This document shows, piece by piece, positions 7,684-57,947 of a stretch of DNA of 64,000 nt. Location of the stretch: the NCBI GenBank assembly GCA_021234155.1, contig JAJEKV010000057.1, forward strand, positions 8,584,108 through 8,648,107, in the 5' to 3' direction. Under the pieces are notes generated by a model that saw only the letters and a list, made by a program, of their open reading frames with translations, did not search any database and had not been told where the DNA came from. Numbering within the stretch: position 1 is the first letter of the stretch; every line of letters starts with the position of its first letter. The position numbers were made by a program, and so were the translations under genes. The DNA comes from Isoetes taiwanensis (Eukaryota; Streptophyta; Lycopodiopsida; Isoetales; Isoetaceae).

Positions 7684-8845
7684 CTTTTACCCTTTTCCCT
7701 TTTCCCCATGCCTTTTTGCCCTTCACATTCTCTCTTTCCACTTCCCTTTTCTTTTTTTCCCTTTTCTTTTCCCTTTTCCTTTTTTTCCCTTTTTTTTTTT
7801 TTTACCTTTTCCTTTTCCCTTTTTCCTTTTCCCCATGCCTTTTACCCTTTTCCCTTTTCCCCATGCCTTTTTCCTTTCACCACCCTTCCTCTTTTTCCTT
7901 TTCTTTTCTCTTTTTTCCTTTTTCCCTTTACCTTTTACCCTTTCCCTTTTCCCCATGCCTTTTTGCCCTTCACATTCTCTCTTTCCACTTCCCTTTTCCT
8001 TTTTTCCCTTTTCCTATTTTCCCTTTTCCTTTACCTTTTTTTCCTTTTTCCTTTTCCTTTTACCCTTTTCCCTTTTCCCAATGCCTTTTTGCCCTTCACA
8101 TTCTCTCTTTCCACTTCCCTTTTCCTTTTTTCCCTTTTCCTTTTCTCCCTTTTTTTTCCCCTTTTCCTTTTTGCCTTTTTCCTTTTCCCCATGCCTTTTT
8201 CTTTTCCCCACCCTTTCTCTTTTTCCTTTTCTTTTCCCTTTTTTCTTTTTTCCCTTTTCCTTTTACCCTTTTCCCTTTTCCCCATGCCTTTTTGCCCTTC
8301 ACATTCTCTCTTTCCACTTCCCTTTTCCTTTTCCCCCTTTTCATTTACCCTTTCCCCTTAAGAGACGCATGACCAATCACAGTGTTGGTAAGTCGTGCAA
8401 TAAATCTAGGCCTTCGAATGCATCCAGATGATCTCAGCCATTCAAATTAGGGCTCGGTGCACTACGCACTTACGGTATAACATTATAATATAAGATTTGA
8501 ACTACATTCTAGGTGGTTTGTTGTCTGTAAAGCAACATACCTACCATAAGTTGCACCAAGTAACACAGTTATACAATCCACTACCACAAATGGCGACTTG
8601 TCCCAATATTTTGCAACTGGTTTTTTTTTTTTTTTTTTGATGGCAAGATGTTTTTATTTTTTTATTATATGAAAAGGGCGGAGACGATGGCGCATGTGTG
8701 CTCGCAAGCCTTCTGTATGCTCTCAGCTCAATCCCATCTGCAACCATCCCATCTTGACTGCTCGATCCCATCTGAGTGAGCTACTGTGAAGTGGTAAAGA
8801 AGGGGCTGCAGGCCGGGTTGGGCGTGCCTCTGATTAGGCTAGCCC

Positions 8846-11851: not shown

Positions 11852-12143
11852 TTTACTGGACACTTTGTATCAGGACCTGCTCCATTCTCGACAGGGACGT
11901 CTTCCAGGTGTTCATGATCGTGATATTTTGGCACAGATCCAAGCATTGGAGGAAGAGCAAATTCAGCAAGCAAAGATGAAGGCAGGTCTGCAGTGGTTTC
12001 GTGATGGAGACCGTTGTACGGGCTTCTTTTTTCGTGCAGCTAAGAGGCATCGCATGACATCAACCAGAGCCGACTGAACTCAGGCAGCATCTGCATAACC
12101 ACTTCCAGACATTTTTTGCTGAGAAACACCCTTTCAATCAGAA

Positions 12144-13439
12144 ATGCAAGATGTTGTTTTATCTAGGATTTCCCCCATCATCTCTGGTGAGCAACGCGAG
12201 TCAATAGAGGTGGCTATGACAGCTGATGATTTAGGTTCGGCAGTCTTTGTACTGAAAAGAGGCAAATGCCCAGGTTTGGATGGTTTGCCAATTGAGTTCT
12301 TCCAGGAGTATTGGGAATGGCTGGAGCGAGCTGTGTATGATGCTTTCTGTGACTTTCGGCGGTCCACTGCTTTGGATAGAATTCTAAACACAGGTGCCAT
12401 CTCACTCATCCCCAAGGTCAAGGATCCTCAGACTATTTCAGATTGGCGGCCCATTACCTTATTGTCGTCCGTATATAAGATCTTCGCCAAGGCTTTTGCA
12501 GAGCGGGTAAAGGACATCTTGGCAGAGTCCATCTCAACAACCCAGTCAGGTTTTCTTCCAAAACGGTGCATTTTGAATAATGTTGCTGCTGCTTACGAGG
12601 GAATTTATTGGGCACGTAGGCAAAACCTTCCAGTTGTATACCTTAAGCTTGATTTTGCAAAAGCGTATGACAGTGTCAGCTGGGAATTCATGCGCCGCTG
12701 TATGCTGAGACTGGGATTTGGGGAACAGATCACATCAGATATTATGAAGTTGCATATCTCCGCTCGGGCGACTGTCCTGTTCCATGGTGAGCCGTCACAT
12801 GCCTTTTCACTCGGTCGTGGTATTCGCCAGGGATGCCCTTTAGCACCATTGCTTTTCACAATTGTTGCAGAGGCTTTGTCACAGTTATTCACCATTGCAA
12901 CGACAGAGGGACTTCTCCATGGTCTTGCAATGGAGGACGGCCCACAAGAGGTGTGCAATCAATATGCAGACGACACGTTCCTCTTCCTAATCGCTAATGA
13001 TGAGAATCTTGCTGCTGTCAAAATGCTTTTAGATAGTTTTTCACTGGCTTTTGGTGTTCTTGTGGGGTGGCAGAAGTGTACAGCTCTGTGGACATTGGAT
13101 AATCCGGCTCCGGCATGTGTTCACGATTATCCATGGAAATTACTTGCGCATGGACAGGCCATCAAGTTGTTGGGGATTCCAGTTGGCATCCGTGTTACTA
13201 TGGGGGCTGCATGGGAGGAGATCATTAGGGGTTTGGAGAAGCACTTGTTCTGGTGGTCCACTGCTAAGTTGTCTCTTGCGGGTCGCATTACAGTGGCCAA
13301 GTCAGTCCTTAGTAGTACCCATGTTTATATGGCATCCTTACTGCTAGCACCACAGATCAAAGTGCGTGAGCTCATTGCAATAGTTTGGAACTTTATTTGG
13401 GCAGGTACTAAGGAAGGTGATGTGGTTAAGGTGGCTTGA
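12144..13439 (+). pseudogene. LINE reverse transcriptase remnant
   Basis: The 431-codon frame carries the RT motif series in order: GKCPGLDGLPIEFF (about 30-45), WRPITLLSSVYKIFAK, FLPKRCILNN, LKLDFAKAYDSVSW (motif A), RGIRQGCPLAPLLF (motif B), NQYADDTFLF (catalytic YADD, near 12963), and LLGIPVG toward the end. Upstream, 11865-12077 holds the conserved LQWFRDGDRCTGFFF segment in a frame closed by TGA. Downstream 13436-13840 continues the thumb region in another frame. The enzyme would reverse-transcribe LINE RNA at a nicked target. Product function is known for the family; inactivity here follows from the breaks. Confidence 0.93.
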
Positions 13440-13978
13440 TCGAAGTGCATCCTTCCAAAATGGGCAGGTGGTCTGGGTATCAGATGGACTTCTTACTGCA
13501 GAGCAAAGTGCTTATTTCAAAGTTCATTTGGAGACTCCTGAATGGTGAGGATGACTCTCCTGGTTCACGCCTTCTTAGACAAGCTCTTGGTCACTGTATC
13601 CCTCTAGGCAAGAAGGCTGTCAAGCCAGTCCTACCTTGGGCTTTATTTCAGACTCTGCAGCCTTTTCCAAGTGCTTCTCCATTTTTGAGTGGCTTATTGG
13701 CAGCATGGGAGGCAGTCAGACATCTTTTCTGGCCATGCCCCTCTATCCACACCCTATTGGAGACTCCATGGTGGTGGGCGCCACTGCCTCCAGACCCCTC
13801 AGCACCTCCATTGGCAGCCTCAGTTCATCCCCTTACATAGAGACGATGGGTTCTTGCAGGTGTTGTCTCTATTCAAGCATGGTATGAGGAGGGTCGCCTA
13901 CTGTCTTGGCCTGAATTTCAGGCAAAGTTCCTGCTCTCTCGTTGGGATACATCTCTATGGGAGAAGGTCGCAGAAAAT

Positions 13979-14608
13979 TTGCCTCTTATAGTGCAAGTTG
14001 GTGTTGCTGAAAGGGTGCCATGGGACTGTCATGAAAGTATTCACAAAGGCAAGCAATTTGTCAGATCAGTATATCGCCTTCTTTTAGCACCACAACCCCT
14101 CCAGTTGCCAGATGGGTGGCACCTACATGTTCCACAGCCCACTTTGTGTCGTACATGGCGATGGCTTTGGGATAGGTTGCTCCACCCTAAAGTCTGGCAG
14201 GTTATCCACAGGTGCCTGCGGGTTAATGCCTTTCGACATCGCTATGATCTTCGCATATCTGCAGTATGCTCGCTCTGTCTTTCGGACGTTGACACTCTTG
14301 AGCATTGTCTCTTTGATTGTCCTGAGGTTCAAATAGCGTGGTCCTGGCTACAAGGTTTGTTTAACAGTACATTGGACTGCCGATGCATCCTTTTGGCGTC
14401 CTATCCCAACGCATGGCCTCCAGCTAAACAAAGGGCATTTCATCTTGGTTCTGGTTGGCTCCTATGGTCGATATGGGAGCGTCGCAGACACCACATCTTT
14501 CAGGGCATTTATTCATCTGAACACAGTGTTATTACAGTGGCCCAGAAAAAGATATTGACAGCCTGCGAATGTTCCTCCCTTGACTCAGAAATGGTGGAAC
14601 GCATCTGA
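13979..14608 (+). pseudogene. LINE C-terminal zf-RVT-like segment
   Basis: This frame contains WWRWLWDRLL-type aromatic sequence (here RTWRWLWDRLLHPKVW) and the Cys/His cluster CSLCLSDVDTLEHCLFDC, as in the zinc-binding tail of plant LINE polyproteins. It is followed by the 3' untranslated region and oligo-A. A frame break near 13840-13979 separates it from the thumb region. Confidence 0.85.
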
Positions 14609-16706: not shown

Positions 16707-17390
16707 ATTGCTATATGTGGATTTACACCTGAGACACTAGGATGGTTTGTGTTTTTCTTTTAAGTAAGAAACAAGAATGGTAGGCAACCATCTAAACCTG
16801 ACTCAAAGAGGATTTTTTTTTTATCAACCTTATAACTAGCCGTATATAAGAACAATCCCACAAAATTCATACATCTGCTAAATCTATCCCTATGGCGTAT
16901 TCTATAGAAAACCATAAACTAACTTGTAATGGATTTGGGACCAAAAGAATCTAAGAACACAAGGTTTATAGCTAATTTATATGCGTAGTACAGTTACCTA
17001 TTTAAGCCTAATGAAACCTTTGTTTTTGTTCAATATAATCAAAGCGATAATTTGGTATTTTCATAAAAAAAAAAAAGAAAAAAAAGAAAAAGAGAGTAAT
17101 TTGGTGTAATTTGGCAGGTTCACATATTACGAATCACTCGTACTTCTTGGTCAATATAATGGAGATATGTATGCCTTATATTATATTTTAGACTAAGTAA
17201 GCAACATGTAAAAAATCAACTAATGCTCCAACTTGATCAAACTTCATAAGGTTACCAGGGCATGTTGACCAACCTTGAGCGTTATTTAGACATATATTCA
17301 TGAAGCTATAAATAATATATTGTAGCAATAAGAGAGTAACTTTCGAAGAGCTCCATTATTTCGTCAATTGCAATAAGTCGTTTAATTCCT

Positions 17391-19250
17391 TATGCCATTT
17401 GCTCTATAGAGGATTTTATCCTTTTTCTTTTCCCTACACACTTCCATTTGTTTTTACCTTTTTTCTCGTTTTCTTTACATGCTTTCTTTTCTTCTTTTTA
17501 GAGCATTATTTTTTTTTTTCCACCCCTTTCCCCCTCAACTTTTTTCCTTCCTATTCCCTTTCCATCTACCTTTTCAAGATGGACTCGAACCTTTCTATTT
17601 TCTCTTTTCGGACCCCTTCCTTCTTCCCTTTCTTTGTGGTTTTTTTCCTTTCCTTTCCCTTTTCCTCTTCCCTTCCTTTTCCATTTCCTTTTTTCCATGC
17701 CCTTTTCTCCACAGGCAACCTTCCCAAAAGAGGTTTTTTTTTTTCTATGCCCATTTTTCTCTTTTCTCCACCATTTTTCCTCTTCCCCTTTTTCTTTTTT
17801 TCCTTTTCCTTTTTATGCATTTTCCCAAAAAATTTTTACCCTTTTCTTCACCCTTTTTCCTCTTTCCCTTTATCTTGTTCCCTTTTCCCCTTCCCTGTTT
17901 TTTTTTTTCTCATGGCCTTATTCCGGTTTCCTTTTCCCCTTTCTTTTCTATTTTCTTTAATTTTCACTTTCCCTTTTTTCCATGCCTTTTTTCCTTCTCT
18001 TTCCCTTTTTTTTCCCCTTCTCTTTTCCTTTCCCATGCCTTTTTTGCTTCCGTTTTAATACGCTCTTTTTTGAAAACTTTTTTCCCTTTCTTCACCTTTT
18101 TCCCTCTTCCCATTTTTTTCCATGCCCTTCCCCTTCCCTTTTCCATTTTATCTCTTCCTTTTTCTTCGTGCACTTTTTTCAAATTTCCTTTCCCCTCCCT
18201 CTTTCTTTTTTCTTTCGCATTTCTTTTTTCCATGCCTTTTTTCCTTTCCTTATCCTCTTCCCCTTTATCTCGTACCCTTTCCGCCTTCCCTTTTCCCGTT
18301 TCCCTCTTCCCTTTTTTTAGCTTCCCTTTCCCCTTTATTTTTCTTTTTTCTTTTCGTTTCCCTTTCCCTTTTTCCATGCCCTTTTTCCCTTCCTTTCTCC
18401 CCATCCTTTTTTTGTTCCCCTTTTTCCTTTCCTTTTCCTCATTTTCCCAACCTTTCACTCTTCCCCTTTTTTTCCGGTGCCCTTATCCCATGCCATTTTC
18501 TCTTCCCTTTTCTTCTTTCCTCATCCTTTCTCTTTTCTCCTTTTTCCCTTCCATTTTTTCATACCCTTTTTCCCTCCCTTCTCCCCTTTCTCTTCCCCTT
18601 TTTCCCGTGCCTTTCACCATTTTCCTTTTCCCTTTCCCTTTCCCTTTCTCTTTTCCCGGTGGCCTTTTTTCTATTCTATTTTCCTCCTCTCCTAACACTT
18701 TCTCTCTTCCCTTTTTTTCCCTTCCATTTCCCCCCCACCCTCGCCTTTTCCCTTTCCCTTTCCCTTTCCCTTTCCTTTTTCCTTCCCCTTTTTTCTTTTT
18801 TTTTTTTCCTTTCCTTTTCCCTTCCCTTTTCCTTCGGCCCTTTTGCCTTCACTTTCTCCTTTTCTTTCGGCCCTTTTGCCTTCCCCTTTTTCATTTTCTC
18901 CTTCCCTTTCCCTTTTTCACTTCCCCACTTTTTTTTTCTTTTTCCCACTTTCCCTTTTCCTTTTTCTATTTTCATCTATCTATCTATCTATCTTTTATTT
19001 CTATTTTCCCTTTTTCCTTTCTCCCTTTCCTTTTGTCCTTTTCCCTTCCCTTTTCCATTTTTCCTCTCTTTTCCCTTTTTCCTTTCCCCTTTTACCCCTT
19101 CACTGTCGGATTGAGTGAATCTTATTGAAGCAACAATCAAGATGAAATTTTTGTTGAAGTCATGCACATGTCATCTTCACCGTCGATCGATCAAATTCTC
19201 AACCATTCGATCTAGGTCTCCATGGAAGACACATGCTATATTTATTTTTA
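17391..19250 (-). mobile_element. Decayed polypyrimidine Helitron relative
   Basis: About 1.7 kb of CCCTTTT-type sequence ends at 19100-19210 with a segment whose reverse complement (containing 'aatttcatcttgattg' and 'ttgcttcaata') resembles the 5' subterminal part of Helitron E (55985-56035). This implies minus orientation. Neither a hairpin/CTAG 3' end nor a clean 5' TC is visible, so both ends look lost. Helitron D starts immediately to the right. Open frames here are low-complexity artefacts. Confidence 0.55.
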
Positions 19251-26695: not shown

Positions 26696-27363
26696 ATTGC
26701 TATATTTGGATTTTCACCTGAGACACTAGGATTGTTTGTGTTTCTCTTTTAAGTAAGAAACAAGAATGGTAGGCTGACTCAAAAAGGAATTTTTTTTTTT
26801 TTTTATCAACCTTACAACTAGCCGTATATAAGAACAATCCCACAAAATTCATACATCTGCTAAATCTATCCCTATGGCGTATTCTATAGAAAACCATAAA
26901 CTAACTTGTAATGGATTTGGGACCAAAAGAATCCAAGAACACAAGATTTATAGCTCACTAGTTATGGTGCCCGGCGTTGCCGGGCATAACTACAATTGTA
27001 TTGTAGAATTATATGAATAAGATGTAGGATTTAGGAACACTAAAATTGATTCAGTTCTATAAGAATTGCAATTCACAATAGAATAATTTCCTAGGAACTT
27101 CGAGCTTGTGTTTATAAGTTGGGCACTGTATAGATCATGGGATTTGGAGTTGCTTGTGGACATTGGACTGATGAGAGTATTGCAATGAGATTTGGAGTTT
27201 TATGTTTCACAATAATAATTGCACTGAGGTGTGAGATGTAAACTGCAATCAAGCTAATATTGAGCCAACTTGTTTAAATGAATCTTCAACTATAACCCAA
27301 AATTCATAAATAGACGTGAATTAGCTTGATGTGTTAACTCTCTCATACTGTTTCACATGTTTA

Positions 27364-27396
27364 ACAAGGTGACCTAGCAAACACACTAATGACCTG
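27364..27396 (+). repeat. Left terminal inverted repeat
   Basis: It starts ACAAGGTGACCTAGCAAA and ends CACTAATGACCTG. It differs from the right repeat only at the two bases between these blocks (CA versus TG). It is preceded by TGTTTA. Confidence 0.92.
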
Positions 27397-27479
27397 TGGT
27401 GCAATTGCAGATTCCTTTTTCAAAAACACGTAAATTCCGCATTTTAGCCATTTTTTAAAAAAAGCAAGCCCAGAAAACG

Positions 27480-27812
27480 TAGTGAGCCTAAAAAAAGTCC
27501 ACATTTCGAAGACAAGCAGGTTTTCTTGGTTTTGGACAAAGTAAGAAACACACTTTTTGGAGCACCAAAATGCAAATGAAAAGAGAAAAGCCTATGCGCG
27601 CATAGAGAAGACAGTCCTTATTAAATTATAATTTATTTAAAAACGCTAGTGAGCCTAAAAGAAATCCACATTTCAAAGACAAGCAGGTTTTCTTGTATTT
27701 AGACAAAGTAAAAGACAAACTTTTTAGACCAACAAAATGCAACTGAAAAGAGAAAAGCCTATGCGGCGATAGACATGATGATCATTAATGGAATATATTA
27801 CATTTAAAATAG
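27480..27812. repeat. Direct duplication inside left transposon end
   Basis: The phrase from 'gtgagcctaaaa' through 'gcaggttttcttg' to 'agagaaaagcctatgcg' occurs at about 27480-27608 and again at about 27648-27775. Each copy ends with a palindrome (27592-27605 and the variant at 27759-27772). It could supply paired binding sites near the terminus. Confidence 0.75.
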
Positions 27813-28528
27813 GGCACAGAGAATAAAATGTTTAACTTTTGGAACAGAAATTTTAAATATCCAAAGGAACATCCTTTGCAGCTATTTCCTCATCTGTTTC
27901 AGAACCTTCGGGATACTTAGGCTTAGTAGCTTCTAGATTTTCCTCAGACTCGGACGGACCTTCTACCTGTTTGACCTTAAGTGGATCTTCGACGGGAATC
28001 AATTCAACATAGTCGGCTTGATCGTCATTGTTCCGTGTAAGAGGAGGCAATGTGCTCGACGAGGAGAAGGCCGGAACACCATCCTTATCCTTGATCCCAA
28101 GTTCCGGTTTTTCGTCCGGCAAGCTGTGTAAGGAACTGACACGTGATTTGATGTATGCTACTGCATCTGCATCGACGTCAACGGCCTACTTTCTGCCAGT
28201 TGTGGCCCCTTCGTAATGCACAAGCCAGCGTGGTGCGGATCACGAAAATGCGTCAACGACCCAATCTCCAGGTTGCGAGAACATGTCCAGAAGCGTGTTA
28301 ATTAGTCTCTGAGGCTTCTGGTAGGGATTGACAATGCGTCCCTGGTGAACTGGGTCTGTAAGCTTTTGTAAGACTGCTGGGCATTGAAAAGCATTGCGAA
28401 AATCCATGCCGGTAGTGTTATAGTGCATTTGGCTTCTCTGCCCAGATACGCTATGGTAGCCTATGTGAATCTGCTCCCACACGTTGACAAGTCTAGCACC
28501 ACCACCTCCCCTAATATTCGTCTTTAAC

Positions 28529-28593
28529 CTGCAAAGAAAGGAAACACTTTTGTATTCGCTATGCCCGCATGGAGAAAACAACTAGACACTTAC
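28529..28593 (-). other. Intron containing palindrome variant
   Basis: The 65-bp intron has donor GTAAGTG after GCCATATG and acceptor CTTTGCAG before GTTAAAGACG. The join restores AAIW-LKTNIRG in phase. A CTATGCGCGCATAG variant lies at 28559-28572. Confidence 0.8.
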
Positions 28594-29774
28594 CATATGG
28601 CAGCCTCGTAACCAGCCTTGCAGTCGGTCTTCATAGCCGCTTGCACCATACCGGCCTGGTTAGTGGAGTGGAAGACGACAATCCTCCAGAGCGGAGCAGT
28701 GTTTATCTTAACAAACCTTCCCAAAAAAGAATCAAACTCGGCGTACGTAAATGGTGAGTCATCACCACGGCTGTCAGGCAACTTAAACCCGTAAGGTATG
28801 TCAGCAATGCACAAGGAATAGTTGCCAGGTCTCAAAGTGTGGTCAAGTTTGACACAATTCCCACGATACACTTGATAAAGACAATTCTGGCCAAACATAT
28901 CAAATCTTTCAAACTCGGAAGGCACCAAACTCTGTTCAGCTTCTTGAGACTTTTTTAGCTTTGACCGCTCCTCTTTAGCTAGCCGGACCATGTTCAAAAA
29001 TCCAGGTGGGATGGGGTCTTTCTTTTTCTGAAAGCCGAAACAATTTGTAAGAAACAAAAATGACTCCCTCACTCACGTGCTATGCGCCAAGATAGCATGG
29101 TAGTGAGGGACACAGGTTAGTGCTATCGCCAAGATAGCACTACCACAAGGTCCCTCAATCACATGCTATGCGCGCATAGCACAGGTACAAAAATGAATAC
29201 CTTAACTCAAGCGAAGAAGGAGGAGAAAAGAAATGACCTACCGGTTGGTAAAGTTGGTGGCATATTGATTTATTTTTTCGTGCGAGGACCACGTGGGGTA
29301 TAATTCCCGCACCTTCTCCCGGTTTGTCGCAGGTTGAGGTGAACCATTAGTCGCTGTTGGCGGCGAGTGCACAATCTTTTTGGTCGCAAAGCGTTCCAAA
29401 AGGTTAATAACAAATATTGGAAAAAACGTGAGTGTGTAATGTAGGCTTACTGTTTAAATTCTTTCTGCATCTCTTCCAGAGTGAACTGTTTATCAACAAC
29501 CTTTTGCAGGACCTCACAAACTTTGTCAACATTTTTTAGGCCTTGCATTTCACGCCAGGCCATTATACCCATATCCTTTTGCTTTGCGGGATCATTTTTC
29601 TTCCTCTTGGAATCCGTTGACTTGCCTTTAGTTTTTAAAGTGCCCTCGTGAGAACATGTCAAAATTTTTTCTTGTAGCTCCCAGACCTAACATAGAAAAC
29701 AACAAGCATGTTAAAAAAATATTTAAGAGCCATGCGCGCATAGCCAAAGGCAAAGGTCGAGAGAAAATACTTAC

Positions 29775-30396
29775 ACGTCCATGACGGAAAGCTAACTGAA
29801 AATAATTATCATATTTTACAAGAGATGCTCTGGCATCTGAGGTGGAGTAAGTTAGGCAAAGCACTTTCGATGGCGCCTTTGTTCTTTTAAGGCCAGTCTG
29901 AGCACGGTCATCCTTAATATCTTTCTCACCTTGGTGCTCGAAGCGGAAGAGTTCATATTCCTTGTGCATGAATTTAATTTTATCTGTGAAGCTCATACTC
30001 ATCCGATACTCATTGTCCACGTTGTGGCTCATTGCAAGCAGCTTTGCCTCTGAGTCAGTGACACCCACGTAAACAAAGGCAAAGATTTGTGAGAAGCAGT
30101 GCTCCTTTGTTTCCTTGTATAGTTGTCTTCTTGCCTTGAAACTGTGGGTGCCCCCTAAAACATAGTATTTGTAGTTCTCGTCCTCTTCCTTAACAAACAG
30201 CTCCTTATCATTGCACTGGGCAGGATCAACTATACATATATGTGGAGCTGTTGCTGCATTCGGCCTGTCTCTTATTCTTTCTTTCAATGCAGTTAAGTGG
30301 CCACTGTAAATTTTACGGACTTGCAATTGTCTCACACCTTGCTCGTCCTTAGGTGCAAGCTTCACACAGTCTACAGAGAGATGCATGATGCCGGGT
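29775..30396 (-). other. ParB-like (ParB/sulfiredoxin fold) domain region
   Basis: The frame after 30396 reads VPGIMHLSVDCVKLAPK, then QLQVRKIYSGHLTALKERI, a central acidic stretch, and YYVLGGTHSFKARRQLYK. ParB-family nuclease/NTPase domains keep a G-H/T-H-x6-A core of this type. In bacteria and phages such domains often sit next to, or are fused with, DNA methyltransferases. Here the domain is the N-terminal partner of the methyltransferase in one polypeptide. Confidence 0.7.
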
Positions 30397-31323
30397 ACAC
30401 GGCTCGATTTCCTCGAGCTTCTTAGATGCCATGTCCTTCTCCTTGCTTGCTATCTTCGTGCCCGGTCCTGACGGCAAAGCTTGCTTAAGGGCCTTCCTGG
30501 CATCTTTTGAGAGTGGAGGCACGGTGGTTGTAACCAGGCCAACCTTGTAGTAATTTCTTTTTCCTTTCTTTTTAGGTGGCTCCTCCTCTTCCTCCTCTAC
30601 ATCCTCCTCTACATCCTCCTCTTCGATTTCCTCTACTTCTTCCTCCTCTTCCACATCTTCAACCAGATGCAAAGTGGCACTCCCCGTTGCTTTAGAAAGG
30701 GTAAGTTTTGGAACAGAGGGCATTGCATCTTTCAATAATTTAGGAACAGAGGCACTAGAAGTTAAAATAGGATCCTTGCACAATAGCAGGTCCTTCAAAA
30801 TGGTGACAAGATCCTGGAAATTGCCTGGAAAGTAACATTCCATTAGCGCAAGAAGAACATTAAAGTTTCTTAGGCTATGTGCGCATAGACAATACTTACA
30901 ATTTTTGCTTTCATTCGGGCCTGAATGTAACCCTGCATGTCCTCGGGAGACGACAGAGTGAGCTTAAAGAAATGGGGGTCCACCGAGTAAACATGTTGAG
31001 CCCCCTTAGTCGTTGTGGTGCAGTTAATATGATACATATCGAAGAGCTCAGTATCTATTAACCTGCCACATCTCTTGAAGCTGTCCAACTCTTTGGATTC
31101 TTTACTAAAACTGTCACAAATGTACAGATACAAAAAATGGGCCGTCACAGGCTCACCAGTTCCTCTTACTAGTAGCCACTGCTGGTCCTTACAGAAATAG
31201 GAACCGTCCTCAGTGATCATGAATGGTGTAGGTGCATCACCCTTTGGTTGATTCTTATCCTTTGTCGGCTTCCTCTTCTTGGCAGCCTTGTGGGAGGAGC
31301 CTGCTTCAGGATTTTTCTTGGCT

Positions 31324-31795
31324 CTACAAGACAGAAAAAACCTATTAAAAGACTGCTAGAAAATGCACAAGCAGATCTAACATTGGAAAGGCCTATGCAT
31401 GCATAGACAACCGCAAGTGAAAAACATTATGCCGGCGCGCCAAAGATAGACAATGGCGAGTGGTAAAGGTAAATGCCTATAATGCGCGATAGACAAGGGT
31501 TGCTAAAAATGTTGGTGCCTATGCGCGCATAGACAATACAAGAAGAGAAAAAACAATATGCCTGTGCGCGCAAAAACAATAATAAGAAAAAAGACAGAAT
31601 GCATATGCACGCATAGACTATGAAAGAAAAAAACACTAAATGCTACTGCCCAAGAAGAAATTCGGCAAACAAGATGACCAAAAAGCTAAAAATCAACTAT
31701 CTTCGTCTCTAACCAAAAGACCCTAAACGGGCTACATTTGGTATAAAATTTCTAACAAGTACTGTAAACTGCTACTGGCTGAGATGTTTACGTAC
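31324..31795 (-). other. First intron, dense in palindrome copies
   Basis: Donor GTACGTAA after ATGACAGGTGGAAG; acceptor TCTTGTAG before AGCCAAGAAAAATCC. This 472-bp intron holds at least five palindrome copies or variants: 31393-31406, 31429-31449 (loose), 31477-31492, 31519-31532 (perfect) and 31603-31616. Confidence 0.75.
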
Positions 31796-31809
31796 CTTCC
31801 ACCTGTCAT

Positions 31810-32242
31810 GTTTGGCGACGCTATGCGTAACTCTATGGAGATGCTCTGATTCAAACGGAAGAGCAAATTTCAAGGGGAGGTCGAAATTTTGAGTAGTATC
31901 GTCTGTATATGCAAATGCCTCCATATGTTTTCGTATTTATATTGTGTTAGGTACTTTGCTTTTCGTCTATGAATTCTTGCATACACATCTAGTTTTGGTT
32001 GCATGCATTGGCTTGTGGAGATAATGTCTAATATTTTGTAATGTTTCTTGGTTGTGTGGCATCTACTTTTCGTATTGAAGTATGCGCACATAGATATATT
32101 TTATCCCTGTCTATGCGCGCATGGGCAACTAGTGTATATTACGTTTGTAACTGCTTTTTTATGCGCGCATGGGCATGTAGACTTGCAGGTTTGAAGGGAG
32201 AGGGTTTAATCGCTGAAACAAGTCACTCTTCCTTGTGCAGCA
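31810..32242. promoter_or_regulatory. Divergent promoter region with palindromes
   Basis: This is the 433-bp gap between the two start codons of the transposon. Palindrome variants lie at 32080-32093, 32111-32124 and 32159-32172, all on the side of the plus-strand gene. No TATA box can be assigned with certainty. A shared control region bound by an element-encoded protein is plausible but inferred. Confidence 0.5.
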
Positions 32243-33535
32243 ATGGAGAGCGACGACGAAGACGTTTTTACTTCAAGTCCTCCTGTTAATGTGGCAATAT
32301 TGACTCGTGGTCGTTACAACACACCCACACCAGTAGGTGACGATGAAGAACACTTCGATACGCTTCTCCCGGATGCTACCTCCTCCACACCATCTCCCTC
32401 CCCTTTACACCTACTGGTGTGTCTACCTCTTTTCAAACTCCATCTCCAAAACACGTTTTACAACATTCGTCCATTTTTACAACACCCTCCCCGCCACAAT
32501 CACGAAGTATCTTCTCCTCTTCCCCTACTCAACGTACTCACTCTATTTTTGATACTCCTTCACCTCTCCAGGAACTACACGAATCGTTGCAATATATTGT
32601 AGATTCTGCGGAGAGACGTGTGCTGCGTGCTGCTGGCCCTTCTTTAACAGAAAGGGCTTCTGAGGAAGACCTTCAAGTTCTGAAGAGAAAGTCGAGAACA
32701 TTATTTGCTGACAGACCTGGCACTTCCGTTGAGGGCGACAAGGCTGATGACCCTGTGTTTGAAGACGTGCAGTTCTGCACTCCTAAAAGACCTACCACAG
32801 ACACTGCTCAGAATAAAAGTCCTGCAGTGAAAAACCCGTACAGCAGTGCGAAAAGATTTAAGAGGGATCCCACAGTAAAAGCTTTTAGAACTGTTATGCG
32901 CGAGCGATTGATGGGACTGTCTTACATGAGAAAGCTGAGGAGACTGAATTGCTGTCAAAAAAAATGCTTACAGGCCTTTACATTTTCGTCTTTAAGGAAC
33001 ATAAGACAACGATTTTTGTCAATGTCGAAAGGTGATCAAGAGTTGTACTTGGCATACAGTGTAAGGCCTGAAGTTGGAGACAATTTTTCATATTATGTTT
33101 CAAGCAACACAGTGTGCCAACTTGCTTTTAAAAGAATACATGCCATTGGAAGTCGTCGCATGTCAAGAGTGCAAAAGAGGTTAGACAGGAATCCGTGCAT
33201 TGATGACTATTCACACCCAAAGAAAGTTGTCGGTATGTACTGCCTAAAAGCAAAAGCTTGGCTGGTTGGTTTCTTTGACTCTAACTGTGCGCGACTTCCA
33301 AACAGTCCTGTATATCATCTGACAGACAGTATTACTAAGAAGGAAGTCTACAGCATGTACAAGGATCTTTTCCAGAGTTCAAGTCAAAAGTTCATATCCT
33401 ATTCCTACTTCTTGAGGTTGTGGAAGCAAGAATTTAATCTTGTTAGGATTCCGAAGAGGCACAGATTTTTGGTGTGTACTAGCTGCTCCACATTAAAGGA
33501 AAAACGAACAATGGCCAAGGATATTCTAGAAAAAA

Positions 33536-33974
33536 GTACGTCCCTTTCGTCTAATCCCTTCTCGTTAGCACGACTAGAGACATTGTCTTATGCGGCCAAA
33601 GCACGGCTATTTAGTCTTGAGTTTGTCTATGTGCACATAGCAGGTCTTTTTTAATCTTGTAGTACTCGCACAGCAGGTCTCTTCAATCTTGTAGCTTCGC
33701 CCCTTCCCCAAAAGAGTCTCCTCTATTATGCGCGCCAAGATAGCACGTCTACAAAAGCTTTTTGCCGGTTACTGGTGGAGCCTTCACATTTGCTTCAAGG
33801 TAATCGACAAAAAGCTTATTTGGCAAGATAGCACGCGGCTACAAAAGCTTAGCTACAGTTACGTGGAGCCCCCATCGTTGCCTATCGCCAAGATAGCACG
33901 GCTACAAAAGCTTAGCTGCAGTTCTGTGGAGCCTTACTATTGCTTCAAGGTACTGACTAATGTCTTAATTGCAG
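33536..33974 (+). other. Intron with three tandem repeats and palindromes
   Basis: The donor GTACGT follows GAAAAA and the acceptor TTAATTGCAG precedes ATCAGATAAC. It holds a perfect palindrome variant (CTATGTGCACATAG, 33627-33640) and three copies, about 80-100 bp each, of a 'caagatagcacggctacaaaa' block starting near 33735, 33823 and 33889. Each block begins at a half-palindrome. Confidence 0.78.
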
Positions 33975-34832
33975 ATCAGATAACTCAAGAGTTGCAAGTT
34001 CACAGAGAGGCTCAAGCCTTGGAGAGAAAGAAGCTAGCAAAACATAGAAAGAAATCTTTGGAGAGGCCACTCGAATATATGTCTGTGGTGGTAGACGGCA
34101 TGGACCAAAAGAAGACCTCACTTCCCCATTTTGTAAATGTTCCAAAGGATTTAGATGAATCCGATTTTTTGAGGCTTCATTTGGTTGGGGCGATGATCTT
34201 TCATGGTGTTGTACAGTGCAGAGTATTTTTGACCTATCCAAATATACAAAGCGATCCTAACCTCACGGTGACAATACTAAATAAGATTTTGCTGGCAAAG
34301 GAGAAGCTGCCTCCAGTGTTGTACTTACAGTTAGACAATACTACTAGAGAAAATAAAAACCAAGTTTTATTTGCTTATTGCGCAATGCTGGTCGAGCTGG
34401 GTATCTTTCGAAAGGTCAAGGTTGGTTTCTTACTTGTGGGCCACACCCATGATCAGATAGACCAAATGTTCAGCAGATTTTCTGTGCGGTTGCGAAGGAA
34501 AAAAGCATTTTGTCTACACTCCTTGTGCAGTGTGATTGAGCAAGCTTACAATCCGACTCCAGTTGTCGAAGTGCTTAGCGAGACTTTTGATTTTCGTGAG
34601 TTTGTTTTCCAGCGTCATGGTGATACAGGTCCTGCTATCCATAAGTTGAATAATTTGACATTTCAACATCATGTAAAAAACTTTCTCAAGGACGGTAAAG
34701 CACAACTTCAAGGGAAGTACTTTGTCACCTCCCAAACTTGGCAGCCTGAGGCAGGCCTACAATATTTAAAATATGTTCCTGAAACTAAGGTAATGAGAAG
34801 GGCTATTCAAGCCACCCTAAAAGTGCCGTAGA

Positions 34833-35648
34833 CTACAATGTAAAAGAACAAGGACAAAAATCCCTTCGCCTCTCCGGACAAAGCATGGAGAAAAGTATAA
34901 GGTCAGGTTTTAAGTACTTCAATTGAGGAGGACAAAGGCTGGTGGGAGAATTTCTTTTCAATAATGCGGGGATGTAACTAAATCCCTCAACAAAGATCTC
35001 CCCGAAGTTGCTTTTGTTGGCCCTGGTACTCAACTTCATCCCCTTGTTGAGGCGAGACAAGGAATTGCAAAGGGTTCCGTGGTTTCGCAAGATCAAGTCA
35101 ACAAGGAACCTGATCGTGTAATGTACCTCGGAAGTAGACGTGTTTTGAAAAGAACCAAGGCCAAACTCCGTAAAAACTTTGCGGATTTGACTAAGGGGAT
35201 GCTTATAGCCGTACCTTCGACCGATGATGGCTAAGAGCGCCCTTTCGATTGCGCGGGTTAAGGACATTGTACTCAAAGACAATCTCCCTTCAAGAGGAAA
35301 GTTCATTTGGTACCAAACTAAGGATACGATCCTTTTATCGGTCGGTATGATCCCCGCGGATAATTCCTTTCAAGGAGGGCCGGAAAATGATGAATAAGAA
35401 TCACATGGACAACTGGACCTGAACGTAAACTCAAGTGCTGGCTTATGATTTTACACTCAAGGTTGATAACAATGCTACGCGGCGATAACAGCTAACTTCA
35501 TCAAGTCTTTCTCGCTAAGATAGTTCGTGATTTAAGGTTCCCGTGGATGAGGACAAGTTGTTCCAAAGCGGTTAGCTCTTCGACCACTTCAAGTGACAAT
35601 GAGGAGAGTGGCAACGAGGACAAGGGTGACGAAGTCCGAAGGAGTTGA
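34833..35648 (+). other. C-terminal coding remnant of the DUF7869-like gene
   Basis: Plus-strand frames between stops read IEEDKGWWENFFSIMRG, then LPEVAFVGPGTQLHPLVEAR through VMYLGSRRVLKRTKAKLRK, then MAKSALSIARVKDIVLKDNL, and finally SSDNEESGNEDKGDEVRRS with a stop. These are consistent with one extended protein broken by indels or unrecognised introns. The 157-codon frame on the opposite strand is its shadow. Confidence 0.6.
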
Positions 35649-36225
35649 CGAGTATAACGACATTCCTAATCATGCTCTTTCTCAAAGGTCAGAAACTTCT
35701 TTGTATAATCTAAATGTGGGCACATCGTTACCTCCTAGTTTTGGCTAGAGTTTTTGTACATGTTGTACATGTTTTGTACATGCTCGCATAGCTTCTTCCA
35801 AGTTTATCCATGTTTTTCATGTCTTGTATAAGCTAAAAATGCTATCGACATGTTAGTTATGTCTTGTATGTTTTTCTCGCTGTTATGCGCCAAGATAGCA
35901 CCTTGTGGTTCTTCTTGAGTAATAACAAATAGATACTTAGATTTGCCAATCTTGCTTTCATTTCTTGTGAAGATTTTAATGGTTCTTTAATTTTGCTAGT
36001 TTTCTTGTATTTCCTAGATTTTCTTAAAAGGTGACTCCATTTTTTAAAATTTTGTTTGGGTGTCTACAATTCACAAAACAAAGAAAAGTTTTCTAATTTT
36101 GGACCAAAAAAGGGGTGTCACAAATCAAAATTGGGGGCTGTTTTTTCAATTGACCCCCCCAAAAGTGGCAATTTTTAGGTTTTTTTTAGGGAATCTTTAA
36201 AAGATTCCTTTTTGTAGTGCAAACG

Positions 36226-36258
36226 CAGGTCATTAGTGCATTTGCTAGGTCACCTTGT
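36226..36258 (-). repeat. Right terminal inverted repeat
   Basis: The reverse complement starts ACAAGGTGACCTAGCAAA. It is followed by the duplication TGTTTA at 36259-36264. Confidence 0.92.
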
Positions 36259-36426
36259 TGTTTATATTGTAGGCATGTGCCTTGCATTCTTGGCGTGTCA
36301 TGGCCATTGGGTGTGCGCCTTATTCTGCTCATAAAGATGGTTGTGGCGACTATTAAACTTTAATACAACAATGACTATCATATACCTAGATATGAAGTAC
36401 GTCTACATGTAACATGTAAGTTGCAA

Positions 36427-45706: not shown

Positions 45707-46075
45707 TTAGCACTTGCATATCTGAAAGGGCTGTCCCTTGCAGATGAGGAGATTTCGTCTCTTCCAGATGGACCAGATGATCCAAGCAGATGCTAAGTGG
45801 AAAGCCCTCTTTGCCAACTTGTCCCAAGAACTAGGATAGACTGACAATAGGACCTGCTGACTATTCAAGTCACAATGGAAAAGACTCAGAAGCCACTGCC
45901 AAGCAGGTCGAACATGGTTACACAAGAAAAAGCAGTGCTCAATTGTCTCATCCCTCTGCGTGCAAAGAGGGCAGATCACAGAGACTTCTGGACGAAATCG
46001 ATGAACAACAGTGTTTACCCGCACGCATCTATGAATGATCTGCCACCATAAAATGGATAGCTTAGGATGAAGCAA
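45707..46075 (-). pseudogene. LINE zf-RVT-like C-terminal segment
   Basis: Frame MLHPKLSILWWQIIHRCV leads to CPLCTQRDETIEHCFFLC, the same Cys/His cluster as at 14270 in the other LINE. It is followed by the LAKRAFHLASAWIIW tail. Confidence 0.85.
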
Positions 46076-46534
46076 TTTATCCCATACCCATCGTCAAACT
46101 GCTTTACGATGAGGCTCGGGGACAACTAAAGGCCACTTTGGTGATGGAGGCAACACCTCAGGATGAAGCAGGACCACATACATCGAGTGCACCAGGTGCT
46201 CCTCCTTAACACTGCCATGAACCACCCAGAGTTGGGGAGCCACGTCTTGTGAGTGTGGAGGAAGTGTAGCAGCTACTTTTTCCCAAATGCCCCGGTCCCA
46301 ACGAAGGAGAAGGAACTTCAATCTGAACTCATTCCACGTCAATAATCTTGTCTCATTATACCATGCAGATACCGTGAGCACACCTGCTGCTCGCCACCGA
46401 CGTTGCGTCAATGGATGGACAGAAGAGACCAGGGGACAATCTGCCTGACCGTCATCCAAAGGGATCCACCAACAACTGGTTGTAGGATCTGTGTGGGCCA
46501 TTGGATGGAACTGAAACAAAGTGCGCACAGTCCT

Positions 46535-47982
46535 TCAAGCAGCTAGCAACCCCTTGAGGAAAGGAGATGCATTAGGATATGGAGAAAGTGGATAGAATAA
46601 TGCCCATGGGAGGAGAGGCTTAATGGATGGAGAGCCAAAGGAAATGCACCTCTGTAAAGACTGGTGAATGAGACGCAGACCTCGAGAATTATCAGCATTA
46701 TTGAGAATCCGCCATATGAACTTAGAGATCAGCACCTTGCTCTGGAGAAGAAAGTGAATCATCCCCAGCCCCCCACAAAGTTTAGGCATAATGCACTTTG
46801 CCCAACTAACTTTAACATCAGCTCCTTCTTCAGTGCCATCCCAGATGAAGTTCCTGACAGTACGAACTATGAGCTGCATCTTTGTCTGCGGTGCCAGCAA
46901 GATGGATGCCATGTAGACATGTGTACCACTTTAACCCGACTTTGCCCGCTATTACACGACCAGCCATGGATAACTTAGCCGTGGACCACCAGAACAAATG
47001 CCTTTCCAACCCCTTAATAATGACATCCCACGCATCTCCAGATGAGAGGTGTATACCAACTGGAATGCCTAGAAGCTTAGTTGCCTTCCCATGAGGAAGA
47101 ACCTTCCATGGAAATGCAACCACGTAAGACGGCCTTCGAGAGTCTAGGCCCACAGGCGATACACTTTTGCCACCCCACAAAGATACCGAAGCCAAAGAAA
47201 AGCTGTCCAACAAAGAAATGGCATTCGCAAATTCTCGCTCATCGACCATTAAGAACAAGATAGTGTCATCGCATACCGATTCTGGATCTTTTGTGAACCA
47301 TTATTCATGGGAAGACCATGCGGGATGCCTTCCCGCGACCGCAAAGAGAGAATACGAGAAAGAATCTCCACCACAATTGTAAAAAGCAGTGGTGCCAAAG
47401 GACAGCCTTGGCGAATGCCACGTCCCACGTGAAAAAATGTTGATGGTTCTCCTTGAAAAAGAACTGAAGAACGAAAGCGAGAATAATGAAGTTTCATAAC
47501 ATCCAAGGCGAATCGGGCACCAAAACCAAAGCGTAAAGGCACCGCCCGGGGAAACTCCGGTCCAACACCGCCATATGCTTTTGCAAAATCCAGCTTCAAG
47601 TATACAATGGGGTAACCATGCATTCTAGCCCAATAGAGACCCTCATATGCTGCTGCCACATTATTCAAGATACACCGGCGAGGCAAGAAACCTGACTGCG
47701 TAGAAGAGATGGACTCGGTAAGCACGCCACAAAGCTTCTCGAAAGCAAAAGCTTTAGCAAAGATCTTGTATTAATCGAGGACAACAAAGTAATGGGGCCA
47801 ATCTGAAATGGAAGAGGGATCCTTGCATTTTGGAATAAGGAGATGCAACTAGAGTTAAGGATTTTTGTCCAGTGCCTCGCGTCTTTTAAAATCGCATTTG
47901 AAAGCATCATACACATCCGCACCAAGCCAATCCCAATACTCACGGAAAAACTCCACTTTGGAATACCATCAAGACGGGACAC
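46535..47982 (-). pseudogene. LINE reverse transcriptase remnant
   Basis: Pieces in order on the minus strand: 47982-47665 (LDGIPKW...), 47725-47249 (TQSGFLPRRCILNN, LKLDFAKAYGGV with motif A damaged, RGIRQGCPLAPLLF, NRYA) and 47258-46535 (LLGIPVGIHLSS, LFWWSTAKLSMAGR). One base is missing at the catalytic YADD, shifting the frame after NRYA. Inactive. Confidence 0.88.
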
Positions 47983-48664
47983 TTGCCCCTCTTGAGGGAA
48001 AAATGTGGCCTCAGCTAAATCATTCTCGGCTGATCTCGGCCTCTAAAGTGGCCCTTTGCTCATTGGTGACTATAGGATGAACCTTAGCAAGCAAGGCCGT
48101 TGAAAATCTGACCGAAAAGGGAAGACAGAAGCGATGAAGAAAGCTGAAAAGTGATTATGCAAAAAGCCTCTAAGCTCGGTGGATCTGAAACAACACGCCC
48201 ATCTTGAACCCGCAGAGACCGAAGAGATCGACTAACTTTCTTGTTTTGGCAGCTCAAGAAGAAAAACAGGCACCCGGTCTCTCCTCCTTGAACCATTGCA
48301 ACCCGGCTTTAATGCGAAAGCAAAGTGCACATGTTCAGATTCTATCTGCCGAATGCTACACAAAATTTGCTTCTCCACATGACCATCTGATGGGGCAACA
48401 GACCTGCATGCTCAAGTTGTCGATAAAGAGCGAGCAGAAGGCTCAGGTTAGCAGAAGCCCGTTCACGACCCCAACTTTTAGCAAAAGACTTCACAGCAGC
48501 GAGAGCATCAACAATACCTGCCATGCCCCTATGTCGAGAGAAAGAAGTGAACCACGCCTGTCTACAGCCTGCCACAAAATCATCATCCTTCAAGAAAAAT
48601 GTATTCAGCTTGAAATATGTCTTAGAGGCAGCATGCACCATCGTATGAGATCAAGAGAAATACT

Positions 48665-55906: not shown

Positions 55907-57947
55907 TCTTATATTATAATGTTGTGTAATGGACCGCACCCTAAATCGGACGGTCGAGGATTTGATTGACCAATGGTGGAGATGATGTGTGCGTGTCTTC
56001 AACTAAAATTTCATCTTGACTATGGCTTCAATATGAAAGGGAAAAGGAAAAAGGAAAAGGAAAAGGGAAAAGGGAAAAGGGAAAAGGGGAAGGGGAAGGG
56101 GAAGGGAAAAGGAAAAACGATGAAAGGGAAAAGGGAAACGGAAAAGGGGAAGGGAAAAGGAAAAACGATGAAAAGGGAAAAAGGGAAAAGGAAAACGATG
56201 AAAGGGAAAGGGAAAAGGAAAAAGGGAAGGAAAAAGGAAAAAATGAAAGGGAAAAGGGAAAGCGGAAAAGGAAAAGGGGGCGGGAAAAGGAAAAACGATG
56301 AAAGGGAAAAGGGAAACGGAAAAGGGGAAGGGAAAAGGAAAAATGATGAAAGGGAAAAGGGAAAAGGGAAAAGGGAAAAAGGAAAAGGGGAAAAGGAAAA
56401 GGGGAAGGGGAAAAGGAAAAAGCGATGAAAGGGAAAAAGGAAAAAGGAAAAGGGAAAAGGTAAAAGGGAAAAGAAAAAAGGAAAAGGGGAAGGGAAAAAG
56501 AAAAAACGATGAAAGGGAAAAAGGGAAAAGGGAAAAGGAAAAGGGGAAGGGAAAAGAAAAACGATATGAAAGGGAAAAGGGAAAAGAAGAGGGAAGGGAA
56601 AAGGAAAAGCGATGAAAGGGAAAAAGGGAAAAGGGAAAAAAAGAAGGGGAGGAAAAAGGAAAAACGCGATGAAAGGGAAAAGGGAAAAGGGAAAAGGGAA
56701 AAGGGAAAGGGAAAAGGAATAAAAGAAAGGTAAGAGGAAAAGGAAAGAGAAGGAGAAAAGGAAAATGGAAAGATAAAAGAAAATAGAAAAAGGAATAGAA
56801 TAGGCGAGGGAAAGGGAGCGGAAAAAAGAGCAATCTTGAGAAGGGTGAGAAAAAGGTGAGAAAAAGGAGAAAAAAGGTAAGGGGAAAATAAAAAAAAGGT
56901 TGCAAAGTCTATGGGAAAAAGAAAAGTAAAAAAAAGGAAAAGAGAGGGGAAAAGGGAAAAAAAGAGAACTTGGGAAAAGGGAGCGAGAAAAAAAAAAAAA
57001 GGAAAAGGGCGTGAAAAAAAGGGAAAAGAGAAAGGGTGAAGAAAGAGAAAAGGAAAGCAAAAAGAGCATTGAGAAAAGGGAGAGGGAAAGGATGGAAAAA
57101 ATGAGGAAAAAGGTGGGGAAAGTAGAATAGACAAAGGGTAGGGAGCAAGGAATAGGAAGAGGAAAAGAGGGAAGGAGAAAAGGGGCCTTGCGAAAAAAAA
57201 AGGGAAGAGGGAAAAAGGGTGAGGAAATAGAAAAAAGAAAGGGAAAAAAAGAGTATAGAAAAAGGGAAAAAAAAAAAAAAAAAGAAATGATAAAAGTGAA
57301 AGGGGAAAAAGGGGGAAGAGGATGGGGAAAGAAGGAAAAAGAATTTTACATAAAAAGGTTGAGAAAAGGGAATGGAAAGAGGCATATGAAAGCGAAAGGA
57401 GCGGAAAGGGAAAATGTAAAGGAAGGGAAAGAGAAAAGGAAAGGGAAAAAGGGAACATCATAAAAAGCAAATGGGTTGGGAAAGTATGAAAAGGGAATGA
57501 AAAGTTGAAAGGAAAAGGGAAGCGGAAAAAGGAGAAGGGAAAGCAAAAAAGAGCATGAGGAAAAAGGGAGAGAAATGGGAAAAGAGATGGGGAAAAGGGC
57601 ACGTGATCAAGAGGAAGAGGGTGGGGAAAGGAAAAAAAGGGCACATGAAAAAGGTAAGCAAAAAGAGAGCGAAAAAATGCATGAGAAAGCGGGAAATAGA
57701 AAAGGAAAAGGAAAAGGAAGAGGAAGGGGGAAAAGGAAAGGAAAGAGAGTAGTGGAAAAATGGGAAGAGCGGGGAAAGATAAAAAGGAAGGGAAAAAGCT
57801 GATAAGAAAAAGAGAAAGAAAAAAAGGGGAAGGGGAAAGAGAAGGCAAAGGGAGTGAGAAGGGGGTTAGAAGAAAAAAGGGAGAATAAAAAAGAAAGAAA
57901 TTAAAGGTTCCTAATTTATGCCCAGCAAGGCTGGGTACCATTACTAG
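55907..57947 (+). mobile_element. Non-autonomous Helitron E, purine-expanded
   Basis: The 5' end TCTTATATTATAATGTTGTG lies at 55907 after A. The 3' end is hairpin 57921-57935, then 8 nt and CTAG (57944-57947) before T. From 56035 to 57900 the plus strand is GGGAAAA-type purine, with 'cgatgaaaggg' recurring every 60-70 bp in the left third. The long Lys/Gly-rich and reverse Phe/Pro/Ser-rich frames are artefacts. It is nested in Helitron F. Confidence 0.85.

What the first reader, a model, noticed from the sequence alone, without database searches (positions are those of the whole stretch)
27364..36258. An 8.9-kb DNA transposon carrying a DUF7869-like gene and a ParB-DNA methyltransferase fusion
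The sequence shows 33-bp inverted repeats (31/33), a perfect 6-bp target duplication TGTTTA and two divergent spliced genes. Known: beta-class N4C/N6A methyltransferases and ParB-like domains are bacterial/phage-type modules, and DUF7869 proteins have D, D and HTH-x-x-D signatures suggestive of a transposase. Inference: this is a plant transposon family that carries its own DNA-modification enzyme, perhaps to mark or silence/anti-silence itself. I know of no named superfamily combining 6-bp duplications, ACAAGG termini and these two genes.
Basis: partly seen in the sequence, partly recalled or inferred. Interest (0 to 1): 0.95.

Follow-up and report, generated by a model that had tools for sequence, protein, structure and literature searches.

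The report
Transposon carrying its own DNA methylase
A common jumping gene in a large, probably plant, genome carries its own DNA-marking enzyme and is studded with short mirror-image DNA signs that differ between its families, as if each family labels itself.

Summary
The element is real: one DNA transposon, window 27363-36259, with 34-nt inverted repeats and two divergent spliced genes. One encodes a DUF7869 protein, the likely transposase. The other encodes a ParB-like region joined to a beta-type N6A/N4C DNA methyltransferase. A ParB-methyltransferase gene opposite the transposase is published for Sola1-1_Ec32 of a brown alga, so the pairing is not new in kind. Membership in Sola1 could not be tested. 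The window copy is broken; relatives keep the catalytic motifs.

What looks new: each family carries its own palindrome, in non-coding DNA. It is CTATGCGCGCATAG in the window's family and a 65%-identical relative, and GTGTATTCCGGAATACAC in a group about 50% identical. None of 14 elements holds the other group's site. Sites often stand about 42 bp apart, four DNA turns. I infer parS-like sites through which the ParB-methyltransferase finds and marks its own element, as VANC proteins find theirs in Arabidopsis. No binding or methylation data exist here.

The parts
27359..27362 (.). left copy of the 4-bp target site duplication, GTTT
27363..27396 (+). left terminal inverted repeat, AACAAGGTGACCTAG...
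   Evidence: 34 nt, 94% to right arm; 520 loose candidates in the own genome, 40 scored, all 93-100%
27862..31934 (-). ParB-like/methyltransferase gene, about 7 exons (approx. 31934-31797, 31330-30900, 30827-29779, 29686-29450, 29393-29239, 29030-28593, 28531-27862; borders good to a few bases at best, acceptor at 29393 not identified); broken in this copy by frameshift and stop
   Evidence: ORFs and junctions; relatives have long open frames
29778..30416 (-). ParB-like region (GGTHSFKARRQL)
   Evidence: 150 scored of 2819 loose candidates in own genome; NCBIfam ParB TIGR03764 E 0.003, below cut-off, in relative L038
28593..29030 (-). methyltransferase exon with motif IV-like DIPYG (motif name recalled)
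28240..28531 (-). methyltransferase C-terminal half, ...NPYQKPQ...DAFS then a stop; DAFSGSGTT intact in L038 and L039
   Evidence: PF01555 E 1.1e-5; 6e-17 and 2e-16 in relatives; alignment
31935..32243 (.). divergent intergenic region with palindromic sites at 32081, 32112, 32160
32244..33533 (+). DUF7869 gene exon 1 (one frameshift near 32.4 kb)
33974..34831 (+). DUF7869 exon 2: likely transposase core (VVDGMD, LQLDNTTRENKN, VGHTHDQID)
   Evidence: PF25273 E 4e-52; 136 scored of 10352 loose candidates
34832..35400 (+). degenerate C-terminal part of the DUF7869 gene (open in L037-L039)
27592..35896 (.). interspersed palindromic sites CTATGCGCGCATAG: 15 sites by column majority of ten copies; in this copy 15 matches to TATGCGCGCATA with at most 2 mismatches, none in the estimated exons
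36226..36259 (-). right terminal inverted repeat
   Evidence: 607 loose candidates, 40 scored, all 95-100%
36260..36263 (.). right copy of the target site duplication, GTTT

Best explanation
A cut-and-paste-type DNA transposon family with AACAAGG..CCTTGTT ends and 4-bp target duplications. The DUF7869 protein is the likely transposase (inferred). The second gene makes a ParB-like DNA-binding region joined to a beta-type DNA methyltransferase, probably adenine-specific (inferred). Each family carries its own palindrome, repeated in introns, between the genes and near the ends, often about four helical turns apart. The most likely mechanism: the ParB-like part binds these sites, loads the methyltransferase on the element's own DNA and methylates it; the mark helps the element escape host silencing or labels it for its transposase. 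Shown: ends, duplication, linkage of both genes, family-specific and often phased palindromes, protein constraint in the pairs where it could be measured. Inferred: binding, methylation and benefit. The element part alone I hold at about 0.95; the full mechanism at the value given.
For: TSD 4 bp: 8 of 10, 8 of 10 by script and 10 of 10 by eye, 3 of 3 relatives with both ends, by eye. Joining L035's flanks with one TSD copy gives a LINE frame that aligns across the junction; keeping both copies breaks the frame. Linkage: 25 of 40 left ends and 22 of 136 DUF7869 hits have a ParB hit in the right geometry, 0 in the wrong one. Palindromes: 14 of 14 elements hold only their own group's site; 15 of 16 window matches lie in the element, 0.73 expected in 64 kb; 0 of 15 overlap estimated exons, which fill 66% of it. 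In L017 site identity is 94%, spacer identity 28-31%. Exact 18-mers: 213 and 2585 in the genome, reversed controls 0. Among the 50 listed places of the second, 17 of 22 steps under 200 bp lie within 2 bp of a multiple of 42, 2.4 expected. The methyltransferase profile best matches MboIIA, CcrM and RsrI. dN/dS is 0.05-0.25 in 14 of the 17 unsaturated pairs.
Against: Among ten copies of the window's family the palindromes are less conserved than other non-coding columns (0.911 against 0.958), so copies show no purifying selection on sites. Only two site classes are known, so covariation with the ParB region rests on one switch, and the DUF7869 protein differs between the groups too. The ParB label is weak and the profile finds no ParB in the PDB. 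The only structure model is useless (pLDDT 37). dN/dS is 0.40-0.56 in 3 of 17 unsaturated pairs, and 31 of 48 aligned pairs are saturated. Loose DUF7869 candidates outnumber ParB candidates (10352 to 2819), so many DUF7869 elements may lack the methyltransferase. Even steps can come from tandem duplication; in L037 spacers are 55-60% alike, and phase in single elements is moderate and untested for significance (R 0.26-0.59). No methylation data.
Confidence: 0.55

Rival explanations
1. The palindromes are binding sites of the DUF7869 transposase or of a transcription factor, and the ParB-methyltransferase acts elsewhere or without sequence preference.
For: Sites also lie near both ends and between the genes; the DUF7869 protein also differs between the groups, 60-81% in exon 2 and about 46% in exon 1 against the window.
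Against: 9 of the 15 majority sites lie in the methyltransferase gene's own introns, away from the ends (exon estimates). That arrays of palindromes suit a ParB-type binder better is general knowledge, not a test.
Confidence: 0.25
2. The methyltransferase gene is a captured passenger and the palindromes are selfish or mutational repeats (minisatellite growth, hairpin-prone units) without a function for the element.
For: Some sites are part of a 41-bp tandem array; in the window's family sites decay faster than other non-coding DNA; spacers in L037 and L039 are partly alike, 55-71%.
Against: Spacers are unrelated in L017 and L040 (26-33% against 94-98% for the sites). The same palindrome persists in L040, whose synonymous sites against the window are saturated or above 2. 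None lies in estimated exons.
Confidence: 0.15
3. A new superfamily with 6-bp duplications and ACAAGG ends.
For: The window copy alone fits.
Against: 1 of 10 copies fits 6 bp with those ends, 8 of 10 fit 4 bp with AACAAGG ends.
Confidence: 0.02
4. Integrated virus or contaminant rather than a host transposon.
For: Prokaryote-like methyltransferase; distant phage-family, viral-contig and phage matches to it.
Against: Hundreds of loose candidate ends in one 1.66-Gb genome, introns, TIRs and duplications; pattern-based scans of viral contigs found no DUF7869 relative; a Pfam scan of ten frames of the element gave no viral structural or replication family above its cut-off.
Confidence: 0.02

Closest known systems
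Sola1-1_Ec32 of Ectocarpus (PMC12477816, passages)
   Same: DNA transposon with a ParB-like plus N4C/N6A methyltransferase gene on the strand opposite the transposase; 4-bp duplications in Sola (Sola2: passage of PMC3627910; Sola1: recalled)
   Different: 21.5 kb against 8.9 kb; brown alga; no palindromic sites mentioned in the passages seen; sequence relation of either protein to ours untested
VANC21/VANC6 of VANDAL elements in Arabidopsis (PMC5735166, passages)
   Same: element-encoded protein; short motifs repeated in introns and other non-coding DNA of the element, differing between families
   Different: VANC causes loss of cytosine methylation and (recalled) is not a methyltransferase; its motifs are short and stand in one orientation, not palindromes
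Bacterial ParB-parS (recalled)
   Same: palindromic sites, ParB-like domain
   Different: here joined to a methyltransferase, in a eukaryotic transposon, many sites per element, binding not shown
TET/JBP-carrying transposons of fungi (PMC12730594, passages)
   Same: DNA transposons of several superfamilies carrying a DNA-modifying enzyme as accessory gene
   Different: enzyme acts on methylcytosine; other superfamilies
IS3EU/GingerRoot (PMC10045372, passages)
   Same: eukaryotic DNA transposons, GingerRoot from a clubmoss
   Different: 6-bp duplications and TA..TA (GingerRoot rarely TG..CA) ends; here 4 bp and AACAAGG ends

Membership tests
Sola (Sola1) | 4-bp target site duplication | tested here: met
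Sola (Sola1) | transposase homologous to Sola1 transposases | not testable with these tools
   no Repbase sequences at hand; DUF7869 named in no paper of the library
Sola (Sola1) | accessory ParB-methyltransferase gene opposite the transposase, as in Sola1-1_Ec32 (not defining for Sola as a whole) | tested here: met
   ParB part weak
IS3EU/GingerRoot | 6-bp duplication | tested here: not met
IS3EU/GingerRoot | TA..TA termini | tested here: not met
   AACAAGG..CCTTGTT
beta-type N6A/N4C DNA methyltransferase (PF01555) | profile match above the curated cut-off | tested here: met
   61-63 bits against 26.7 in L038 and L039; window copy 26.0, just below
beta-type N6A/N4C DNA methyltransferase (PF01555) | motif IV (D-L/I-P-Y) before motif I (DAFSGSG) | tested here: met
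   L038 and L039, read; motif names recalled
ParB family | ParB N-terminal domain by profile or fold | tested here: inconclusive
   TIGR03764 E 0.003, far below cut-off; no PDB ParB match; structure job not accepted
DDE/RNase-H transposase | RNase-H fold with three acidic residues | tested here: inconclusive
   single-sequence model pLDDT 36.6, not searched
VANC-type sequence-specific anti-silencing | family-specific motifs repeated in the element's non-coding DNA | tested here: met
VANC-type sequence-specific anti-silencing | protein binds the motif and changes DNA methylation | not testable with these tools
   needs binding assay and methylation maps

The most novel reading that the evidence does not exclude
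A eukaryotic self-identity system: a transposon whose ParB-methyltransferase reads helically phased, family-specific parS-like palindromes in the element's own non-coding DNA and writes a prokaryote-type base mark there, with palindrome and reader switching together when families split (CTATGCGCGCATAG to GTGTATTCCGGAATACAC, in comparable non-coding regions of the element).
Probability: 0.45. Interest if true: 0.88.

Novelty: new variant of a known kind. Interest (0 to 1): 0.74.

Why it matters
ParB-methyltransferase proteins in algal transposons are known, but the passages I could read do not say what they recognise (I did not search print for such sites by name). Here the element supplies a candidate: palindromes that differ by family, avoid exons and often sit in helical phase. 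That makes the question directly testable by a gel shift and by native long-read methylation calls. If right, it is a second solution, besides VANC, to how a transposon aims an epigenetic effector only at itself, and a case of adenine or N4-cytosine marking by a transposon.

Tried and rejected
Rejected: 6-bp duplication; IS3EU (ends and duplication; passages); viral origin (pattern-based scans found no DUF7869 relative; two weak methyltransferase loci, L043 and L044, not followed up; 679 phage records, all under 60% identity; one insignificant match for the ParB part). ParB by PDB profile: no match. A third family's site: two 1-kb stretches upstream of DUF7869 hits held neither palindrome; no element gene was recognised in them, so uninformative. 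Structure: the only model is of no use, so no fold search was made; a job for the ParB region was not accepted. Alignment A1 contained a misaligned read-through fragment of L039, so its pattern search is weak. Papers on Sola (2009), on Bostrychia and the 2011 review were not held.

A test that went against my reading: if sites were under selection in each copy they should be better conserved than their surroundings; they are worse. I keep the reading because dead copies need no selection, and because fast decay would also fit modified bases or systematic base-calling error; this is not resolved.

Choice of copies: the 20 stretches were ranks 2-15 of the 40 left-end hits plus 6 lower hits picked because a ParB hit lay nearby; 9 held the right end. 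The 10 were left-right pairs I picked; not every possible pair was taken. L037-L040 were picked from the ParB list. For L037 no right TIR was found; the stretch alike with L038 was used as its element. Array units and the distances were chosen or copied by hand.
Full report
What is there. The window is part of a 1.658-Gb genome in 1110 contigs. The size equals what I recall for the quillwort Isoetes taiwanensis; the host was not tested. The 8.9-kb element has 34-nt inverted repeats at 94%. Searches of the own genome with its left and right ends gave 520 and 607 loose candidates, of which 40 each were scored, at 93-100% and 95-100% identity. Of 20 ten-kb stretches taken from left-end hits, 9 hold the right end as well; three of these (L019, L024, L025) align with the window element in one piece over its whole length at 90-91%. 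Ten copies aligned together differ by 8.4% on average at ungapped positions.

The duplication is 4 bp. Ten further copies gave 8 of 10 by script and the other two by eye, where one TIR base is mutated. L019 and L034 fail. In three relatives with both ends found (L038, L039, L040) the duplication is CCAA, GAAT and AAGT, read by eye; L037 has no right end. In the window the duplication GTTT is flanked by a T and an A that happen to equal the element's last and first base, which produced TGTTTA. L035 lies in a LINE: joining its flanks with one GGAG gives one reading frame that aligns across the junction with the LINE at 13841-14608 (38.7% identity); keeping both copies breaks the frame.

The genes. 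The plus-strand gene has DUF7869 (E 4e-52; 7e-53 in L037). The minus-strand gene has a ParB-like region and a methyltransferase whose C-terminal half matches PF01555 at 6e-17 and 2e-16 in L038 and L039 and at 1.1e-5 in the broken window copy. A profile of three sequences best matches MboIIA, CcrM and RsrI in the PDB, and L039's piece best matches CcrM in NCBIfam (5e-10, far below that model's cut-off). These are adenine enzymes (MboIIA by its name, the others from knowledge), so adenine is the better guess. L038 and L039 keep DLPYG or DIPYG and DAFSGSGTT. The window copy has frameshifts and a stop and is probably dead.

Constraint. NG86 dN/dS gave a value in 17 of 48 aligned pairs; 31 were saturated and one further pair did not align. 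DUF7869 exons 1 and 2: 0.05-0.14 in 7 of 8 pairs and 0.56 in exon 2 of L037-L038, where L038 is frameshifted; its C-terminal part: 0.08, 0.09 and 0.42. ParB exon: 0.25 in the one usable pair, L037-L038. Methyltransferase C-terminal exon: 0.07, 0.14 and 0.20; its DIPYG exon: 0.11 and 0.40. Values for the methyltransferase pairs rest on dS above 2, except the 0.40, and are rough.

The genes belong together. Of 40 scored left ends, 25 have a scored ParB hit inside 12 kb on the opposite strand, 22 of them at 2.1-3.7 kb; wrong geometry 0. Of 136 scored DUF7869 hits, 22 have a scored ParB hit upstream on the opposite strand within 12 kb; wrong geometry 0. The lists are capped at 40, 150 and 136 scored hits, so these are lower bounds. 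The loose candidate counts (10352 for DUF7869, 2819 for ParB) suggest that many DUF7869 elements may lack the second gene; this was not settled.

The palindromes. ATGCGCGCAT occurs 3-15 times perfectly in each of ten window-family elements with both ends and 11 times in L040, whose ParB region is 65% identical to the window's. ATTCCGGAAT occurs 6-10 times in L037, L038 and L039, 48-50% identical. None of the 14 elements holds the other's site, even with one mismatch. Of the 11 window-family stretches without a right end, 10 hold 2-9 perfect sites and L030 none. In 300 shuffles of each of five elements no 10-bp palindrome occurred more than 3 times. In the window 15 of 16 matches lie in the element, and 0 of those 15 overlap the estimated exons, which fill 66%. 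The column majority of ten copies has 15 sites, none in exon columns. Between chosen units, the 14-base site is 94% identical in L017 and the neighbouring 12-base spacers 28-31%; L040 gives 98% and 26-33%; L037 gives 95% and 55-60% and L039 (4 units) 100% and 56-71%, so in that group tandem growth contributes.

Numbers and spacing. The extended 18-mers occur 213 and 2585 times in the genome against 0 for the reversed controls; 50 places of each were listed. Of the first 50, 19 have another within 10 kb (0.3% expected) and 5 lie within 10 kb of a listed element hit (0.4% expected). Of the second 50, 41 cluster within 10 kb, and 17 of 22 steps under 200 bp are within 2 bp of a multiple of 42 (2.4 expected; 0 of 20000 random sets reached the phase at 10.5 bp). 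Within single elements the phase is moderate (R 0.26-0.59) and was not tested against chance. Forty-two bp is four turns of DNA, so such neighbours face the same side. The two palindromes share GT-N-TAT...ATA-N-AC. In both groups sites stand in methyltransferase introns between the ParB and catalytic exons, though not in the same intron by my estimate, and in the stretch between the N-terminal methyltransferase exons and the DUF7869 gene.

Against this: within the window's family, site columns are less conserved than other non-coding columns (0.911 against 0.958; CpG 0.848 against 0.881; other bases 0.937 against 0.962; exons 0.945). A recurrent derived form, CCAAGATAGCA, stands in the window copy (5) and in some others. 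So the case for function rests on persistence between lineages and on position, not on constraint within the family.

Comparison. [quoted passage not shown] references seen; the cited works not held). The present element has the same design and a Sola-like 4-bp duplication (Sola2 4 bp: passage; Sola1 recalled). The VANC paper shows that VANC21 and VANC6 have different short motifs repeated in non-coding regions, introns included, of their own VANDAL families (passages). The layout here is the same in kind. Searches on DUF7869 and on ParB or adenine methyltransferases with transposons found, among the listed titles, only the Ectocarpus paper to the point; no search was made for palindromic sites in such elements, and the library is open access only.

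Verdict. A real, abundant transposon family of a known design, probably in a vascular plant, with family-specific and often phased palindromes that suggest how its methyltransferase finds its own DNA. Binding and methylation remain to be shown.

Noticed in passing
window 1-6000, 7680-8353, 17300-19100, 56000-57900: Long one-sided pyrimidine or purine tracts (CTTTTCCC-like), GC skew in 2-kb bins from -0.5 to +0.8.
   Followed up: no
window 12123-14608 (+) and 45707-48042 (-): Two reading-frame groups that look, by eye, like L1-type non-LTR retrotransposons; a relative hosts the L035 insertion.
   Followed up: partly
window 29087, 29129, 33735, 33888, 35890; also L019, L020, L024-L026, L033, L034: The same non-palindromic form CCAAGATAGCA recurs at or near places where other copies have the palindrome; concerted change or systematic base-calling error at modified sites.
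   Followed up: partly
window 27480-27642 and 27647-27809: A 163-bp direct repeat (82%) next to the left end of the element.
   Followed up: no
window 59932-60651 and 60969-61421 (+): Reading frames that resemble, by eye, Crypton-type DUF3504 proteins; no search was made.
   Followed up: no
window 608, 26321, 42772, 43738: Recurrent tandem units TAGAGGGGTTATCCTTGCTCGATCAAACCT.
   Followed up: no
L037-L039, C-terminal part of the DUF7869 gene (L039:8603-9190): Conserved extra region (KGMxIALPTEEDDKGRPFWIAKV...KIHW) without a significant Pfam match in L039; by eye a possible chromatin-reader fold.
   Followed up: no
own genome: 10352 loose candidates for DUF7869 exon 2, far more than for the ParB region; this may be one of the larger transposon groups of the genome.
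   Followed up: no
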